Source: an uncultured Bacteroidota bacterium (GTDB lineage Bacteria; Bacteroidota; Bacteroidia; Flavobacteriales_D; Sanyastnellaceae). From it: 61,064 bases of DNA. This document shows positions 2,853 to 21,494 of the stretch, piece by piece. Numbering within the stretch: position 1 is the stretch's first letter; every line of letters begins with the position of its first letter. The stretch spans positions 1-61,064 of the forward strand of contig CAIZGX010000063.1 in NCBI GenBank assembly GCA_903932685.1. Direction: 5' to 3'. Both the position numbers and the translations under genes were made by a program. The notes under the pieces are model-generated. The model worked only from the letters and a program-made list of their open reading frames with translations. It did no database searches and was not told the DNA's origin.

Positions 2853-5800
2853 ATGCTAGAAAAATTTAAAGAATTCAAACCCACCAGTTGGGCCATTGAC
2901 AATAAGACTACCATTTATTTGCTAACGATATTCATTACGTTAGCGGGTATTCTTACATATAGAAGTATTCCGAAGGAACAGTTTCCAGACATTGTTATTC
3001 CAACAATTTATGTGAGCACTGTTTACCCGGGTGCTGCTCCGAAAGACGTTGAGAATTTGGTTTCCAAAAACATTGAGAAACAAATTAAGTCCATTGCTGG
3101 AGTGAAGAAAGTAACCAGCACCAGCATTCAAGATTTCTCGAGTGTGGTGGTTGAATTCAACACGAACGTAGATGTTCCTGTTGCAAAACAAAAGGTAAAA
3201 GACGCAGTAGACAGAGCGAAGAAAGATCTTCCACAAGACCTTCCTGCCGATCCGAATGTTATGGAAGTTGAGTTTTCTGAAATGCCTATTTTGTTCGTGA
3301 ACATTGCGGGTAATTACAGCCTCGATGAATTGAAAAAGTACGCGGAAGAACTTCAAGATAAAATTGAAGGAATGAAAGAGATCACGCGTGTTGATATGGT
3401 TGGAGCTTTGGAGCGCGAGATTCAAGTGAACGTTGACATGTACAAAGCAGCGGCTGCGAAAATTAGCATAGGCGATATTGAACGTACACTGAATTACGAA
3501 AACTTAACCATCAGTGGTGGTAGTGTGGAACTCGACGATATGAAGCGTTCATTGAGCGTAAGCGGAGAGTTCAAAGACATTGAAGAGATTAAGAATTCAA
3601 TTATATCTGGACAAACGGGTGCTCACTTGTATTTGAAGGACATTGCGGAAGTTGTCGACGGACATAAGATTCAAGAAAGCTACGGTCGCTTGAACAACAA
3701 GAACGTTATTACGTTGAACGTGATCAAGCGTGGTGGAGAGAATTTGATTAACGCGTCCGACGAAATTCAGGAGATTATTGCTGAAATGAAAGCGAACAAA
3801 TTTCCAAAAGATTTGGAAGTTGTTGTTACCGGAGATCAGAGTAGAACCACGCGTATTACGCTGCACGATCTGATTAACACCATCATCATTGGATTCATTT
3901 TAGTTACCATTATTTTGATGTTCTTCATGGGTGCAACGAACGCTATTTTCGTTGGACTTTCTGTTCCGCTTTCCATGTTCATTGCGTTCTTGTTGTTGCC
4001 AGGATTGGACTTCACCATGAATATGATTGTCTTGTTCGCCTTCCTTCTTGGATTGGGAATTGTGGTAGACGATGCCATTGTTGTGGTTGAAAATACCCAC
4101 CGTATTTACGATAACGGAAAAGTTCCTATTAAGATCGCAGCGAAGAAAGCAGCTGGAGAAATTTTCCTTCCTGTCTTGTCTGGAACAGCAACTACGCTTG
4201 CACCCTTTGTTCCGCTAGCCTTCTGGGACGGCGTCATTGGAAAGTTCATGGGTTACCTTCCGATTACATTAATCATAACGCTAACAGCATCATTGATTGT
4301 AGCGTACATCATTAGTCCTGTTTTCGCAGTAGACTTCATGAAACCGCACAAAGAAAACAAAGGAGTAAACATCAAGAAATTGGGAATCACTTCAGTCATT
4401 TTCATTGTTGTTGGAATTCTATTTTACATTTCTGGAAATGTGGGAATGGGAAACTTCACCATGTTCATGTTGCTCATCTACATTTTCTATCGTTTCATTT
4501 TGAAGCGCATGATCGAGTATTTCCAGCACAAGACATGGCCTGGTGTTCAAGCCATTTATGCGAAATTCTTGGTGTGGGCATTGGCACGACCAAAGACCAT
4601 TTTGTTAAGCACGTTACTACTGTTGATTGTCTCTTTCATGGTTACTGGATTGCGCAAACCTGAAGTAGTTTTCTTCCCGAAGGGAGATCCGAATTTCGTT
4701 TATGTATACGCCAGTCTTCCAGTAGGAACGAAGCCTGAAGCAACAGACAGTGTTGCAAAAATTATTGAGAAACGCGTGTACAGTGTCTTGGGTGAAAACA
4801 ATCCGATTGTTGAATCTGTGATTACGAACGTGGCCATTGGCGCGAATGAATCTCGAGATGACCGAGCTCCTTATTCGCACAAGGCGAAAGTGGGAGTTGG
4901 TTTTGTTGAATTTTCGAAACGCGGAGGACAAAGCACGTTGGATTATTTGGAAAAAATTCGTGCTGCCGTGCAAGGAATTCCAGGGGTTGAAATTTCGGTA
5001 GACCAAGAGCAAAGTGGTCCGCCTACAGCGAAGCCTATTGCTGTGGAAATCACTGGTGAGAATTTCGAAGACTTGATTGCAGCGAGTGTGAATCTAAAAA
5101 ATTATTTAGATGCGCAGCAGATTCCAGGTGTTGAAGAACTGAAGAGTGATTTGCAGCGCAACAAGCCGGAGATTGTGATTGATATTGACCGTGAGCGCTT
5201 GAATCGCGAAGGGCTGTCGTTGGCACAAGTGGGAATGGAATTGCGTAAATCTATTTTCGGAATCGACAATCCATCGAACTTCCGCGACGAAGAAGATGAG
5301 TATCCAATTCAAATTCGTTTGCAAGAAGATCAACGCAATAACCTAGAGGAGGTTCGCAACATGGTCATGACGTTCCGCGACATGAACATGATGGGACAGG
5401 TTCGTCAAGTGCCTATTTCGGCATTCGCAGACGTGCATTACAGCAGCACATACGCGGGCATACGCAGAAAAGATCAGAAGCGCATAGTTACCTTGGGTTC
5501 AAACGTTATAACCGGGTTCAATCCGAATCAAGTGGTTGCAGCCATTGAACAAAAAGTAGCTGATTTCGATAATTTACCGAAAGGAGTTACGGTGAAAATG
5601 GGTGGTGAGAAAGAGCAACAGCAAGAGACTGCAAGTTTCTTGGGAATGGCCGGATTGATTGCGATTGGCTTGATCGTATTGATTTTGATTACACAATTCA
5701 ATTCAATTGGAAGAACGTTGATTATTCTATCTGAAATTATTTTCAGTGTCATCGGCGTTTTACTTGGATTGGCCATTTTCGACATGTCAATCAGTATTGT

Positions 5801-6314: not shown

Positions 6315-6339
6315 TTTCACGCAAGTTCTTTTTCATCCT

Positions 6340-6645
6340 TCTTAGAAGTTAATCCCCGAAGGTTTAAAGAGCCCCAAAGGGCGACATGTGAAATGTCCCC
6401 AGTGAAGCTAGGGGATAAAAGTTTAGATTAAATCTGATTTTAATAACCAGGGGTTCCAATTATGAAATAGGAATTACGCAGTAGGAACAACGAAGTTCTA
6501 ACAACGAAGTTCCTCGGGGGCATTTCGAATGCCGCTCGATAAACGAGCTCGATTTCTATTGGGGCATGCTCCAATTTTAATTTCAGAAATCGTCGAAGAC
6601 ATTCGCCGAAGGCATTCGTTGCTTTGCAACATTCGTGCTTAGCAC
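6340..6645. repeat. Intergenic array of short hairpins (ATTC-linked at its right end)
   Basis: This stretch carries no credible gene but many small inverted repeats. Clear ones are GGCATT-TCG-AATGCC (6519-6533), GCTCG-ATAAA-CGAGC (6534-6548), a near-palindrome at 6558-6575, then GTC-GAA-GAC (6592-6600), GCC-GAA-GGC (6605-6613), GTTGC-TTT-GCAAC (6618-6630) and GTGC-TTA-GCAC (6635-6645). The last four are each separated by ATTC. AACAACGAAGTT also appears twice around 6487-6512. The stems differ in sequence but keep their pairing, so the structure rather than the sequence is repeated. Confidence 0.7.
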
Positions 6646-6646
6646 A

Positions 6647-6683
6647 TCTTCCCCTCTCTTCCCTTTTCTTCCCCTCTCTTACC
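6647..6683. repeat. Polypyrimidine repeat, single copy
   Basis: This 37-bp C/T-only stretch, apart from one A near its end, matches the outer end of the right repeat of the four-helix-bundle cassette (12270-12306) at 33 of 37 positions and ends at the same CTCTTACC boundary. It is followed by a similar flank (TACAAAAGCAC against TATAAAGCAC). It lies directly between a hairpin array and the -7 box of the CPBP gene. Confidence 0.75.
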
Positions 6684-6696
6684 TACAAAAGCACCT

Positions 6697-10830: not shown

Positions 10831-11661
10831 ATGGCGAACGCATCTATTTGGATATTGGGAAAAACGGGTCAGCTGGCGCAATGCTTCGAAGATTCGTTTA
10901 TGGGGGAAACAGCAGCAAGCATTCGCTTCTTCGGACGCGATGAAATCGATTTCGAAAATGATCTTTTTGAACAGCTTTCAGAGTTAAATGAAATTCCAGA
11001 TGTCATTGTCAATACCGTTGCCTACACTGCAGTAGACAAAGCCGAATCGGAAGAAGAACTCGCGCATCGCGTGAATGCGGAAGCCGTGAGCGAGCTCACC
11101 GATTTCTGTTCGCTGCACGACATTGTGCTGATTCATTTTTCAACCGACTATGTTTTTAATGGAGAAAAAAGCTCTCCCTATACCGAAGGTGATGAATGCA
11201 ATCCGCTTGGTGTATACGGAAGAACCAAACGCGAGGGAGAGCTGGCAGTGTTGGAATGTGAGACGGGTATTGTCATTCGCTTAAGTTGGCTGTATTCCAA
11301 CTACGGAAAAAACTTTTACCTCACTATGAAAAACGCCATGGCTTCCGATCCATCGCGTGAACTCCGGGTGGTGAACGATCAAATGGGTTGTCCAACCGAC
11401 GCATCCGACGTCGCGAATTCAGTTTCAACATACACCCTAAACTGCTTAAACGAAAAAACCGAATGGACGTTCGGTCTCTTTCATTTCACCGGGAATGAAG
11501 TTATTTCGTGGTACGATTTCGCCGTGCGGATTAAGAATGAATTTGGTTATTCGAATACAATAATTCCGATTGCGACCAGCGAGTATCTTACTCCTGCCCG
11601 AAGGCCAGCCTATTCCGTTCTTGGTTCGGTTCGAAAGCTTTTTTCTGGTAAGAGAAGTTAA
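10831..11661 (+). CDS. rfbD: dTDP-4-dehydrorhamnose reductase, C-terminus shortened
   Basis: The 276-residue protein has the RmlD/RfbD signatures: the NAD(P)-binding GKTGQLAQ at residues 11-18, the STDYVFNG active-site region, the YGRTKREGE Tyr-Lys pair, and RRPAYSVL near the end. It reduces dTDP-4-keto-rhamnose in dTDP-L-rhamnose synthesis. Family members normally continue roughly 25-30 residues after the RPxxSxL motif; here only nine residues follow, and the last four codons plus the stop lie inside the polypurine repeat at 11647. The other rml genes are not in the window. The loss probably followed insertion of the repeat cassette, and activity is uncertain. Confidence 0.88.
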   Translation: MANASIWILGKTGQLAQCFEDSFMGETAASIRFFGRDEIDFENDLFEQLSELNEIPDVIVNTVAYTAVDKAESEEELAHRVNAEAVSELTDFCSLHDIVLIHFSTDYVFNGEKSSPYTEGDECNPLGVYGRTKREGELAVLECETGIVIRLSWLYSNYGKNFYLTMKNAMASDPSRELRVVNDQMGCPTDASDVANSVSTYTLNCLNEKTEWTFGLFHFTGNEVISWYDFAVRIKNEFGYSNTIIPIATSEYLTPARRPAYSVLGSVRKLFSGKRS

Positions 11662-11730
11662 GAAAGGGGAAGAGAGGGGAAGATTTTGTTGAAAGGTAAG
11701 AGAGGTTAAGATTGGGGAAGAGGGGGTAAG
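11647..11730. repeat. Left inverted repeat (polypurine) of the four-helix-bundle cassette
   Basis: The strand shown is almost entirely A/G with interspersed T. Its first 37 bp (11647-11683) match the reverse complement of 12270-12306 at 35 of 37 positions. An inner block AAAGGTAAGAGAGGTTAAGA (11692-11711) matches 12245-12264 reversed at 20 of 20. The repeat begins inside the last codons of rfbD. Confidence 0.85.
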
Positions 11731-11741
11731 ATTGTGCAGCC

Positions 11742-12089
11742 TTATTCGAGCTTGGATTTGATAGTGAGTATTGATTTGTTGAGCATGAAATGGACATGAC
11801 GACATTTATTTTCGAGCGATGTTATTTTGTCTTCAGCAGCATAATTCATTTTCTTGATAAGGTGTAACCAGTAGAGAGTTTCTTTACATTCTTTGAATGA
11901 AATGTACTGTTTATTTAAGAAATCTTTTTGTGAAATTGCCCCCTGTGCTTCTGCTAGATTAGCACCTATTGAAGTTCCACTACGTGCAATTTGTTTTGAA
12001 AGAACAAACTCTTTTTTCTGAATTAGTTCATTCGAAAGTTTTAGTATTCCTATTGCAAGCTCTGTAGCAACTTCATTTATATATGCCAT
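11742..12089 (-). CDS. Four-helix-bundle protein (23S rRNA intervening-sequence protein family)
   Basis: This 115-residue protein matches the S23/four-helix-bundle pattern: KKEFVLSKQIARSGTSIGAN followed by EAQGAISQKDFLNK and a YWLHLIKK helix. Relatives occur inside intervening sequences of 23S rRNA genes, as free-standing genes in Bacteroidota, and as the Avd accessory of diversity-generating retroelements. No rRNA, reverse transcriptase or variable repeat is nearby, so this is the free-standing type. I chose the ATG at 12089 because the family fold begins there; the frame is open to 12152. It sits between inverted repeats. Confidence 0.8.
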   Translation of the reverse strand: MAYINEVATELAIGILKLSNELIQKKEFVLSKQIARSGTSIGANLAEAQGAISQKDFLNKQYISFKECKETLYWLHLIKKMNYAAEDKITSLENKCRHVHFMLNKSILTIKSKLE

Positions 12090-12214
12090 TTGTTTTTCTT
12101 CAAAATTCGAAATCAAAATTTCAAATTGCAAGAAACACATATGCCATAACATTTTCTTAAATCTTTCAAAACACCTTTAAAACCTATCTTTCATCGCAAC
12201 ATAACCACATACAT

Positions 12215-12306
12215 TCTTCCCATCTCTTCCCTTTTCTTCTCTTTTCTTAACCTCTCTTACCTTTTAATCTCTTCCCTTCTCTTCCCCTTTCTTAACCTCT
12301 CTTACC
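12215..12306. repeat. Right inverted repeat (polypyrimidine) of the four-helix-bundle cassette
   Basis: This C/T-rich stretch mirrors 11647-11730. The outer 37 bp match at 35 of 37 and an inner 20-bp block matches exactly. It ends with CTTACC at the stop codon of ogt, which is at 12306-12308. Confidence 0.85.
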
Positions 12307-12842
12307 TATAAAGCACTCTCTAAATTCAGCAGCGACTCCTTCCGCGCAATGCCACCGGCGAATCCAGTAAGGCTTCCATTCTTCCCAATAACGCGATGAC
12401 AAGGAACAATAATCGCAAGTGGATTTTTCCCAATGGCTTGTCCAACCGCGCGAATGGCTTTTTTATTTCCATATTGAAGAGAAACCCACTCGTAGCTTTT
12501 TGTTTCTGAAAATTCAATTTGAAGTAGAATTTCCCAAATCTTTTTTTGGAATTCAGTTCCAGAAGGAAGTAACGGTAAATCGAAGCTCTGACGGGTATTC
12601 GCGAAGTATTCGTGTAGTTGTTGCTTAGCGGTTTCTAAGATGTCACACGAATTTTGTTCTTTCAATTCTTCTTCTGCAAAATCAACTCGTGTGATGTTTT
12701 TTCCATCGGAAAACAAATGCAAATAACCGATTTTGAATTGGTGGCTGATTTGAAATCGGGTCGAATAATTATTCGCCCCGATGAAATTATTGATACAATT
12801 TTTTTTCAAAAATAAATTGATTAACAGATTCCGAAAGGCCAT
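12306..12842 (-). CDS. ogt: Methylated-DNA--protein-cysteine methyltransferase
   Basis: A protein of about 178 residues with the suicide active site PCHRVIG and the following GSLTGFAGG, preceded by the DNA-binding helix region (AIRAVGQAIGKNP). It removes alkyl groups from O6-alkylguanine by transfer to its own Cys. The start is uncertain: the ATG at 12842 lies 56 nt inside nadD, a TTG at 12863 is also possible, and the recognisable domain begins near YSTRFQISHQF. It is the last gene of the yicC-gmk-nadD operon. Its stop codon overlaps the right cassette repeat, but the C-terminus looks complete. Confidence 0.88.
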   Translation of the reverse strand: MAFRNLLINLFLKKNCINNFIGANNYSTRFQISHQFKIGYLHLFSDGKNITRVDFAEEELKEQNSCDILETAKQQLHEYFANTRQSFDLPLLPSGTEFQKKIWEILLQIEFSETKSYEWVSLQYGNKKAIRAVGQAIGKNPLAIIVPCHRVIGKNGSLTGFAGGIARKESLLNLESAL

Positions 12843-13371
12843 CAGATTTTCCAGAAATCGCAATGTTTTCTCTTATTATCGTTGAAGAAACAGCAAGTAG
12901 TTGAAAAGCAATAAACTCAAACTGTTGCGGAAATTTCTTGATCCATTCATTCGAAGAAATCTCTTGTTCGGTTTCTCTTGAGCAAACCAAGAACGTCACA
13001 CTTTGAATGAGCTCTTCGTATTTGTACCACGCTGAAAGCTGATTCACCACATCTGTTCCGCAGAGGATGTGAAAGTTGAAGGAAGGATATTCTTCTTTCA
13101 GTTTGCGAATGGTGTGAATCGTATACGAAGGAGTTGGCATGTCGAATTCGATCGTACAGATTTTAATCTTGCTTTCGTTTTGAAGAGCCAGTGAAACCAT
13201 GTGCGCTCTGTCGTTGGCAGAGGCCAAGGTGTTGAGCGATTTCAAAGGATTGTGCGGACTAACCACGAGCCACACTTCGTCGCATGTATTCGATTGAAGC
13301 GCTGCATGCGCCATAGCGAGGTGTCCGTTATGAACAGGATTGAAAGATCCGAATAGAAGCGCTATGTTCAT
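12787..13371 (-). CDS. nadD: Nicotinate-nucleotide adenylyltransferase
   Basis: The 194-residue protein has the nucleotidyltransferase motif GSFNPVHNGH at residues 8-17 and a C-terminal SSTIIRENI (the ISSTxIR motif). It adenylates nicotinate mononucleotide in NAD synthesis. Length and motifs are normal. It overlaps gmk by 4 bp (ATGA), indicating translational coupling, and the following ogt frame begins inside it. Confidence 0.95.
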   Translation of the reverse strand: MNIALLFGSFNPVHNGHLAMAHAALQSNTCDEVWLVVSPHNPLKSLNTLASANDRAHMVSLALQNESKIKICTIEFDMPTPSYTIHTIRKLKEEYPSFNFHILCGTDVVNQLSAWYKYEELIQSVTFLVCSRETEQEISSNEWIKKFPQQFEFIAFQLLAVSSTIIRENIAISGKSDGLSESVNQFIFEKKLYQ

Positions 13372-13952
13372 TCAGCAAGGAAATCGTTAACCAACTTCAT
13401 GGCTTCGGCTTTTGCGACATCTAGATTGTCGTTCACCAAACGCACATCGAATTTGTCTGCATAGGTCAATTCCAATCCAGCTTTCGAAACACGTTGTTGA
13501 ATTTTTTCTTCCGATTCTGTCGATCTATTTATCAAACGATCCATCAACGCTTCAACACTTGGCGGCTGAACAAAGACAGCCAAGGCATGGTGATGGAAAA
13601 TTTCTTTCAGGTGAAGTCCACCTACCACATCAACATCGAAGATGACATGTTTTCCGGCTTTCCAAATGCGTTCCACCTCGCTTTTGAGTGTTCCGTATTT
13701 CGTTCCGGCATAGACTTCTTCCCACTCAACGAATTCGTTTTTGTCTATCTTATTTTGAAATTCTTCGTTCGACAAAAAGTGATAATCTTTTCCATCTACT
13801 TCTTCTCCACGTTTTTCGCGAGAAGTAGCACTAACGCTGAACGCCAACATGAGCGCGGGCTCTGAGAGTAAATATCTTACGAGCGTTGTCTTACCCGCGC
13901 CACTCGGAGCAGAGAAAATAATGGCTTTTCCGGTTACTTGACTAGAGAACAT
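13368..13952 (-). CDS. gmk: Guanylate kinase
   Basis: The 194-residue protein has the P-loop SAPSGAGKTT at residues 14-23 and the GMP-binding region (SREKRGEEVDGKDYHFL, then EWEEVYAGTKYGT). It phosphorylates GMP to GDP. It overlaps yicC by 11 bp and nadD by 4 bp. The yicC-gmk pairing is widespread in bacteria. Confidence 0.97.
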   Translation of the reverse strand: MFSSQVTGKAIIFSAPSGAGKTTLVRYLLSEPALMLAFSVSATSREKRGEEVDGKDYHFLSNEEFQNKIDKNEFVEWEEVYAGTKYGTLKSEVERIWKAGKHVIFDVDVVGGLHLKEIFHHHALAVFVQPPSVEALMDRLINRSTESEEKIQQRVSKAGLELTYADKFDVRLVNDNLDVAKAEAMKLVNDFLAE

Positions 13953-21291: not shown

Positions 21292-21494
21292 TCCGCTTTG
21301 CGGACTAATCCTGAAAGGATGTATCCACTAGGTGGACTAATCCCGTTGGGATACATCCGCTTTGCGGACTAATCCTGAAAGGACCAATCCCGGAGGGACA
21401 TATCCACTTTGTGGACCAATCCCGTTGGGATACATCCGCTTTGCGGACTAATCCTGAAAGGATGTATCCACTTTGTGGATTAATCCCTTTGGGA
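21292..21494. repeat. Array of 13 triloop hairpins with a 16-bp period
   Basis: Thirteen short palindromes, each with a 4-6-bp stem and a 3-nt loop, follow one another at 16-bp centre-to-centre spacing, with a single 15-bp step. Four stem types alternate: TCCGC/GCGGA (loop TTT), ATCCT/AGGAT (loop GAA), TCCAC/GTGGA (loop TAG or TTT) and ATCCC/GGGAT (loop GTT, GGA or TTT). Linkers are about 3-4 nt (CTA, GTA, ACA, CCA). Both stem arms change together. The array occupies the space between the HYC_CC_PP-like and HMA genes and also supplies the last codons of the former. Confidence 0.92.

What the first reader, a model, noticed from the sequence alone, without database searches (positions are those of the whole stretch)
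11647..12306. Four-helix-bundle gene inside long inverted polypurine/polypyrimidine repeats: a possible small mobile cassette
Seen directly: outer 37 bp match in inverted orientation at 35 of 37, and an inner 20-bp block is identical. The repeats enclose only an S23-type gene. A related single copy at 6647-6683 shares the outer boundary. Established: S23 proteins are linked to intervening sequences and to Avd of retroelements. Inference: the unit is a non-autonomous element whose ends can fold into a long hairpin or triplex-forming tract, with the protein possibly acting on its own ends or RNA.
Basis: partly seen in the sequence, partly recalled or inferred. Interest (0 to 1): 0.75.

Follow-up and report, generated by a model that had tools for sequence, protein, structure and literature searches.

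The report
S23 genes inside inverted short-repeat arrays
A small four-helix-bundle protein gene of unknown function (S23) sits, in many different bacteria, between two mirror-image arrays of a short repeat that is also scattered through the genome, which suggests that this protein and these unexplained repeats belong to one mobile-element-like system.

Summary
In detail: window 11647-12306 is an S23 (PF05635) gene between inverted 10-bp-period arrays. It is not a local oddity. In this uncultured Flavobacteriales genus 27 of 29 S23 genes have inverted flanks scoring 20 or more, against 0.4% of 3000 random windows, and each S23 clade has its own repeat motif. Outside the genus 42 of 69 usable S23 loci from many phyla score 15 or more, against 1 of 135 shifted windows; 36 of those 42 have a 7-nt period. 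Copies without S23 are scattered genome-wide, many as short two-armed elements. Two gaps in the window gain or lose S23 units among congeners, and two S23 units are flipped in place. Best reading: S23 is the protein partner of a REP/RAYT-like repeat system. Protein-repeat binding and the chemistry of mobility are inferred. Copy number follows S23 presence only partly. No paper found states the link (open-access text only).

The parts
11647..11736 (-). left (S23-downstream) array, unit TCTT(A/C)(A/C)C(C/T)TC read on the minus strand
11742..12089 (-). S23 / four-helix-bundle gene, 115 aa
   Evidence: 2rld E 4.9e-21
12090..12211 (-). leader between the upstream array and the start codon
12212..12306 (+). 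right (S23-upstream) array, same unit on the plus strand
6647..6683 (+). solo array of the same unit; its gap (6318-6695) is the place of an S23 gene of another clade in congener G004
6486..6512 (-). short stretch of the GAACTnCGTTGTT unit (motif of another S23 clade)
6590..6635 (-). short stretch of the CGAATG unit (motif of another S23 clade)
10831..11661 (+). rmlD, convergent neighbour whose stop lies in the left array
12306..12863 (-). ogt, convergent neighbour whose stop abuts the right array

Best explanation
S23 genes outside rRNA are the protein-coding member of a widespread class of small repeat elements: [short-repeat array] - S23 - [same array inverted]. The S23 protein (relatives with solved structures are pentamers of four-helix bundles) most likely recognises its own clade's repeat unit, probably as single-stranded DNA, as RNA or as the arm hairpin, and thereby promotes keeping and spreading of the element and of its non-coding relatives (solo arrays and two-armed elements without S23), much as RAYT proteins are thought to do for REP sequences. 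Shown: architecture, clade-specific motifs, dispersal, site-to-site presence/absence and in-place inversion. Inferred: protein-repeat binding, the part of S23 in spreading, and all of the chemistry.
For: Genus: 27 of 29 S23 flank pairs score >=20 inverted vs 0.4% of 3000 control windows; 28 of 29 exceed the control 99th percentile. The clade-by-motif table is near-diagonal, and strictly sense-upstream/antisense-downstream for five of the eleven motifs. The same locus with a different S23 clade has a different motif: CGAATG/CGAGGG, AAGGT/AAGAT, GAACTnCGTTGT/TAATTGGAAA. Outside the genus 42 of 69 >=15 vs 1 of 135 shifted windows; direct orientation 4 of 69; 36 of 42 with period 7, 14 or 21 and 41 of 42 purine-rich sense arms. 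One heptamer-type motif in 49 genomes: the 10 genomes whose sampled S23 gene carries it have 8-275 matches, the other 39 a median of 0. S23 is absent from 39 of 40 fetched dispersed copies; many are two-armed with S23-type polarity. S23 gain or loss at rmlD-ogt and AcrB-CPBP and two in-place inversions. The motif of the window's S23 clade is most abundant in the two genomes that have that clade (93 and 62 matches, others 0-36). The one genus genome without S23 (G007) has 0, 1 and 0 matches for three motifs.
Against: 27 of 69 outside-genus loci do not reach 15. Copy number follows S23 presence only partly: AAGAT arrays are abundant in G006 (104) and G005 (77), where no S23 of that type was found, AAGGT arrays are most abundant in G000 (41), which has none of that type, and 10 of 39 genomes without the motif at the sampled S23 gene still have >=8 matches. 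In one of the ten positive genomes (G079) 5 of the 8 matches are the S23 flanks themselves. Polarity is mixed for six of eleven genus motifs, and 7 of 29 genus flank pairs also score >=20 in direct orientation. The two arms of one element are not more alike than arms of different elements, and interiors of the non-coding elements are mostly unrelated. No target-site duplication. S23 has no known catalytic activity (recalled). The rmlD-ogt comparison is a replacement (723 bp against 51 bp), not a clean insertion.
Confidence: 0.52

Rival explanations
1. S23 is a host regulator: it binds arrays in transcripts (or DNA) across the genome and autoregulates its own gene through the flanking arrays; the arrays spread by ordinary recombination and slippage and nothing is mobile.
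For: The purine-rich sense arm in 41 of 42 outside-genus cases suggests strand-specific recognition; TAACTGA heptamers in a Beggiatoaceae genome lie mostly just upstream of start codons and were proposed to bind a translational regulator (PMC4679880, abstract, passages and section 17).
Against: Presence or absence of whole S23 units at the same site and in-place flips; many dispersed copies are two-armed elements rather than single sites.
Confidence: 0.2
2. The arrays are recombination-prone intergenic landing pads, and S23 genes are one of several passengers.
For: Other accessory genes lie near arrays: a beta-lactamase-family gene (L017), ORF6N and YhcG-type nuclease genes (L027), and a gene of about 420 aa (no Pfam match for the G004 copy) in the rmlD-ogt gap of G004 and G005:C76. 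Breakpoints between genomes fall at arrays (L024 against L076).
Against: Insertion into one direct array would not give inverted arms; each S23 clade of the genus has its own motif; the same architecture with unrelated motifs occurs in many phyla.
Confidence: 0.13
3. The repeats are REP sequences moved by RAYT (Y1 transposase) genes.
For: RAYT-type genes exist in 4 of 9 genus genomes.
Against: The 6 RAYT-type genes are not inside such arrays (best inverted score 18.5, next to a different C-rich repeat); 4 genomes with the window's array have no such gene.
Confidence: 0.04
4. S23 works as in diversity-generating retroelements (Avd-like), with a reverse transcriptase in trans copying the hairpin RNA.
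For: PF05635 proteins resemble Avd (PMC10053308, passage); the unit folds into a strong RNA hairpin.
Against: No RVT_1 hit in any of 9 genus genomes, while the same search rings in 3 of 14 control genomes.
Confidence: 0.05

Closest known systems
23S rRNA intervening sequences (IVS) with an S23 ORF, e.g. Coxiella burnetii
   Same: S23 gene enclosed by inverted ends that form a long stem (28-bp stem in Coxiella); called a selfish element there, and mobility has been suggested (PMC4990558, abstract in the listing and passages).
   Different: Not in rRNA; ends are tandem arrays of a short unit that differs between S23 clades; many dispersed copies without the gene.
REP sequences and RAYT (REP-associated Y1 transposase)
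   Same: One small gene flanked by inverted copies of a short repeat that is also scattered through intergenic DNA, lineage-specific (general description recalled; papers seen only as a search listing).
   Different: The protein is S23, unrelated to HUH Y1 transposases; the repeats are tandem arrays.
TAACTGA heptamer repeats of Beggiatoaceae, Cyanobacteria and Bacteroidetes; cyanobacterial STRR
   Same: Same kind of repeat; the S23 genes of Mastigocoleus (L214) and a Saprospiraceae MAG (L197) have exactly this heptamer (TCAGTTA) beside them.
   Different: PMC4679880 names S1, Csp and CsrA as candidate binders and does not mention S23 (0 occurrences; section 17). STRR is recalled.
MITEs / terminal-inverted-repeat transposons
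   Same: Short non-coding copies with inverted ends plus a rarer coding copy.
   Different: No transposase in the unit, no target-site duplication seen, ends are repeat arrays, interiors mostly unrelated.
Avd of diversity-generating retroelements
   Same: Homology of PF05635 and Avd according to PMC10053308 (passage).
   Different: No reverse transcriptase found in the genus.

Membership tests
S23 / PF05635 protein family | curated HMM score | tested here: met
   92.1 bits vs 33.8; TIGR02436 97.1 vs 24
S23 / PF05635 protein family | pentamer of four-helix bundles | not testable with these tools
   sequence relative 2rld has 5 chains; Xcc0516 described as five four-helix bundles (title in the reference list of PMC3936711)
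23S rRNA IVS | located inside an rRNA gene | tested here: not met
   the only Rfam hit in the window is a tRNA; no rRNA hit in 20 other S23 loci tested
23S rRNA IVS | inverted ends forming a long stem around the S23 ORF | tested here: met
   predicted fold, z -10.7
23S rRNA IVS | excision by RNase III | not testable with these tools
   needs RNA
REP/RAYT | Y1 HUH transposase encoded between the repeats | tested here: not met
   only S23 lies between the arms; the genus's 6 Y1_Tnp genes are not in such arrays
REP/RAYT | many intergenic copies, lineage-specific | tested here: met
   8 of 9 genus genomes, 0 of 51 other family and order genomes; intergenic place not counted systematically
DGR (Avd) | reverse transcriptase | tested here: not met
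   0 of 9 genomes
MITE / TIR transposon | target-site duplication | tested here: not met
   20 elements, shared word left/right 4.15 own vs 4.08 cross
MITE / TIR transposon | cognate transposase in the genome | not tested
   no transposase family other than PF01797 was searched

The most novel reading that the evidence does not exclude
S23 elements are a separate class of mobile element, found across many phyla, that needs no known recombinase: a ring-shaped pentameric nucleic-acid-binding protein reads about five tandem repeat units (median arm 33 nt, about five heptamers) and drives copying of arm pairs into new places, bracketing unrelated DNA; 23S rRNA IVSs and the unexplained heptamer arrays of cyanobacteria, Beggiatoaceae, Bacteroidota and Clostridia are its products.
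Probability: 0.3. Interest if true: 0.95.

Novelty: new variant of a known kind. Interest (0 to 1): 0.85.

Why it matters
S23/IVP is a large family described as functionally uncharacterized (PMC11270868 passage) apart from its Avd relatives, and short tandem intergenic repeats such as TAACTGA have no known partner protein (PMC4679880 offers only candidates). A cross-phylum link between the two gives each the other's missing half and makes both testable: which protein should bind which repeat follows from the flanks of its gene. If mobility is confirmed, it would add an element class without a recognised recombinase and could explain how S23 genes come to sit in rRNA genes, operons and cas loci (the last from PMC3936711).

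Tried and rejected
Rejected: RAYT origin; reverse-transcriptase partner; coincidence of S23 genes with any intergenic repeat (controls); transposon with target-site duplication. Arm-by-arm co-evolution within one element was tested and not found (p 0.58 and 0.65). A strict one-to-one match of S23 clade presence and array copy number was tested with AAGGT and AAGAT and not found.

Led nowhere: paper searches for S23 together with repeats (no paper; nothing relevant listed except the Coxiella IVS paper; brought the TAACTGA paper); one search found only that same paper. All 10 paper searches are spent, and subscription journals are not covered.

Dropped rows and choices: 4 of the 80 loci had too little flank and 7 belong to the genus, leaving 69. 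For one search I gave 50 of 73 outside-genus loci (the 10 with the motif and 40 others chosen by hand); 49 were held. Two of the ten positives (L194, L209) have the same arms and may be close relatives. The 20 elements were picked because both arms matched the pattern in the capped listing; the 20 because only one arm did; the score limit of 14 was set after seeing the scores. The mini-hairpin test used fetched loci only. The genus S23 genes are partly orthologues, so the 29 are not independent.

I lowered the main confidence from 0.55 to 0.52 for the first.

Full report
What is there. The window is contig C63 of a 2.37-Mb genome; records of its congeners are titled Flavobacteriales bacterium, two of them Chryseobacterium gleum. 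At 11647-12306, between the convergent genes rmlD and ogt, lies one S23 gene (11742-12089, minus) between two inverted arrays of a 10-bp unit, TCTT(A/C)(A/C)C(C/T)TC on one strand. As RNA the unit folds with z -10.7.

The repeat is scattered. The end sequence has 66 matches with up to two mismatches in the genome, control 0. A pattern of the unit is found in 8 of 60 genomes, all in the genus (8 of 9), and in 0 of 51 others of the family and order. The two genomes with an S23 of the window's clade, G000 and G006, have the most matches: 93 and 62, against 0-36 in the other seven.

Every S23 clade of the genus has its own repeat. The genus has 29 PF05635 hits in 8 of 9 genomes, 28 over the cut-off. 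Scored by local alignment of the upstream flank with the reverse complement of the downstream flank, 27 of 29 reach 20 and 28 of 29 pass the 99th percentile of 3000 random windows from the same loci, of which 0.4% reach 20; in direct orientation 7 of 29 reach 20. The exceptions are G004C19 (7.0), whose downstream array runs in direct orientation, and G006C15 (14.0). The motifs are GGTAAGAG, AAGTAAGT, CGAATG, CGAGGG, ATTGAT, AAGGT, AAGAT, GAACTnCGTTGT, TAATTGGAAA, GATGAC and GAATGAG. Five of the eleven (GGTAAGAG, CGAATG, CGAGGG, GAACTnCGTTGT, TAATTGGAAA) read only sense upstream and only antisense downstream within 400 bp, leaving aside the fragment G008C40's two stray GGTAAGAG hits; the other six are mixed to various degrees. 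Several motifs alternate with self-complementary spacers that vary in a compensating way: for AAGGT the outer spacer pair is complementary in 96% of 27 distinct spacers against 37% expected from the columns.

The pairing follows the protein, not the place. Three loci shared by congeners carry different S23 clades with different motifs: CGAATG or CGAGGG (L158, L160 against L155, L156), AAGGT or AAGAT (L164 against L166, L169), GAACTnCGTTGT or TAATTGGAAA (L170, L041, L172 against L167). Conversely, two paralogues of clade A at different loci of the window genome (86% identical) share their motif, as do the two GATGAC-type genes of G004.

Movement. At rmlD-ogt, G000 has S23-A; G004 has an S23 of another clade with GAATGAG arrays plus a 418-aa gene without Pfam match; G005:C76 has a relative of that gene with arrays of two types; in G005:C115 and G006:C13 the two genes abut. 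In G006 a 51-bp stretch stands for window 11616-12338, 723 bp, so this is replacement rather than clean insertion. The gap that holds the 6647-6683 copy is, in G004, the home of an S23 in GATGAC arrays. In two cases the S23 unit is inverted while both flanks are colinear (L164 against L169; L039 against L152).

Beyond the genus. A scan of genome contigs kept the best 80 of 350 related stretches. Of 69 usable loci outside the genus, 42 have inverted flank scores of at least 15 and 33 of at least 20; windows shifted within the same loci give 1 of 135 and 0 of 135; the direct orientation gives 4 and 3 of 69; pairing flanks of different loci gives 4.6% and 2.0% of 1481. By record title the 42 include Bacteroidales and Prevotella, Clostridia, Selenomonadales, Rickettsiales, Desulfobacteraceae, Syntrophaceae, Spirochaetaceae and Victivallales, and Zarconia, a cyanobacterium (recalled). 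In 36 of 42 the best period of the upstream arm is 7, 14 or 21 (14% in shuffles); the upstream arm is purine-rich on the sense strand in 41 of 42 (18 of 27 in the genus); the median arm is 33 nt, about five heptamers. Of 20 S23 loci of the same family and order, 8 reach 20, two of these also in direct orientation.

Dispersed copies elsewhere. One heptamer-type pattern was counted in 49 genomes. The 10 whose sampled S23 gene carries it have 48, 275, 112, 96, 23, 8, 141, 19, 19 and 65 matches; without the S23 flanks themselves (1-6 matches each) the range is 3-269. The other 39 have a median of 0 and 23 have none, but 10 have 8 or more. Only one S23 gene per genome was looked at, so some of these ten may have another with the motif. 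Twenty copies picked because both arms matched are elements of 66-279 bp with inverted arrays at both ends, plus one of 430 bp that is an S23 gene; interiors are mostly unrelated, though about half share a sub-terminal stretch. Of 20 copies in one genome where only one arm matched, 12 have a weaker inverted partner on the side expected from the S23 polarity and 1 on the other side. S23 is present in 2 of 70 loci fetched around the pattern.

What it most likely does. The simplest reading that covers clade-specific motifs, dispersal and same-site changes is a protein-repeat pair: S23 recognises its own unit and helps the element and its non-coding relatives to persist and spread. It resembles REP/RAYT in layout but not in protein, and IVS in protein and stem but not in place. 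No reverse transcriptase was found in the genus, so an Avd-type route is unlikely there. Solved relatives are pentamers (2rld has five chains; Xcc0516, reference title in PMC3936711); a ring reading about five tandem units is my speculation from the median arm length.

Against it. Copy number does not simply follow S23 presence. Arms of one element are not matched to each other beyond the family level. No target-site duplication. 27 of 69 outside-genus S23 genes lack the feature at this sensitivity; some of these sit behind tRNA genes, three with a Gut-1 RNA. No biochemistry is shown.

Print. Searches listed no paper that I could see to link S23 genes with flanking short-repeat arrays; most listed papers were seen only as titles and abstract beginnings. 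Passages were seen of PMC4990558, PMC3936711, PMC11270868, PMC10053308, PMC8700078, PMC5524665, PMC10910872 and PMC11637426; abstract, outline, passages and section 17 of PMC4679880. The library holds open-access papers only. I file the finding as a new variant (IVS-like S23 elements outside rRNA that work like REP/RAYT) and keep the bolder reading as the novel case.

Noticed in passing
L027 (G000:C53) 1972-2066, minus: The N-terminal signal-peptide-like stretch of a Laminin_G_3-domain protein (MKNRITSFLPSLPFSSPLLTSLFPLL...) is encoded by a TCTTACC-type array: a repeat array apparently read as a secretion signal.
   Followed up: partly
L218, L228, L246 (also L202, L247, L260): Some S23 genes without arrays, in Clostridia by record title, lie downstream of tRNA genes; in three of the 20 loci scanned a Gut-1 RNA (RF01706) lies between tRNA and S23. 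Gut-1 may be an RNA partner or leader of this S23 group.
   Followed up: no
window 21300-21491: A 32-bp tandem array with mini-hairpins (GGACTAATCC...GGATGTATCC) near two minus-strand genes; looks like another array family without a known S23 partner.
   Followed up: no
L214 and L197: Mastigocoleus and Saprospiraceae S23 genes have TCAGTTA arrays beside them, the reverse complement of the TAACTGA repeat of PMC4679880.
   Followed up: partly
L119 (G001:C30) 4600-4715: The ogt reading frame appears to run on through a CGAGGG array, adding a repeat-encoded tail (read from the sequence).
   Followed up: no
window 12787-13952: A nadD-like (cytidylyltransferase-family) gene and a guanylate kinase gene lie next to the S23 site; in Flavobacterium columnare a four helix bundle gene lies between guanylate kinase and nadD (table in PMC5524665; Pfam).
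   Followed up: no
L205, L215, L225: S23 units with CAATTAA-like arms sit tightly between two genes with similar flanks in all three Desulfobacterota-type records; a good place to look for empty sites.
   Followed up: no
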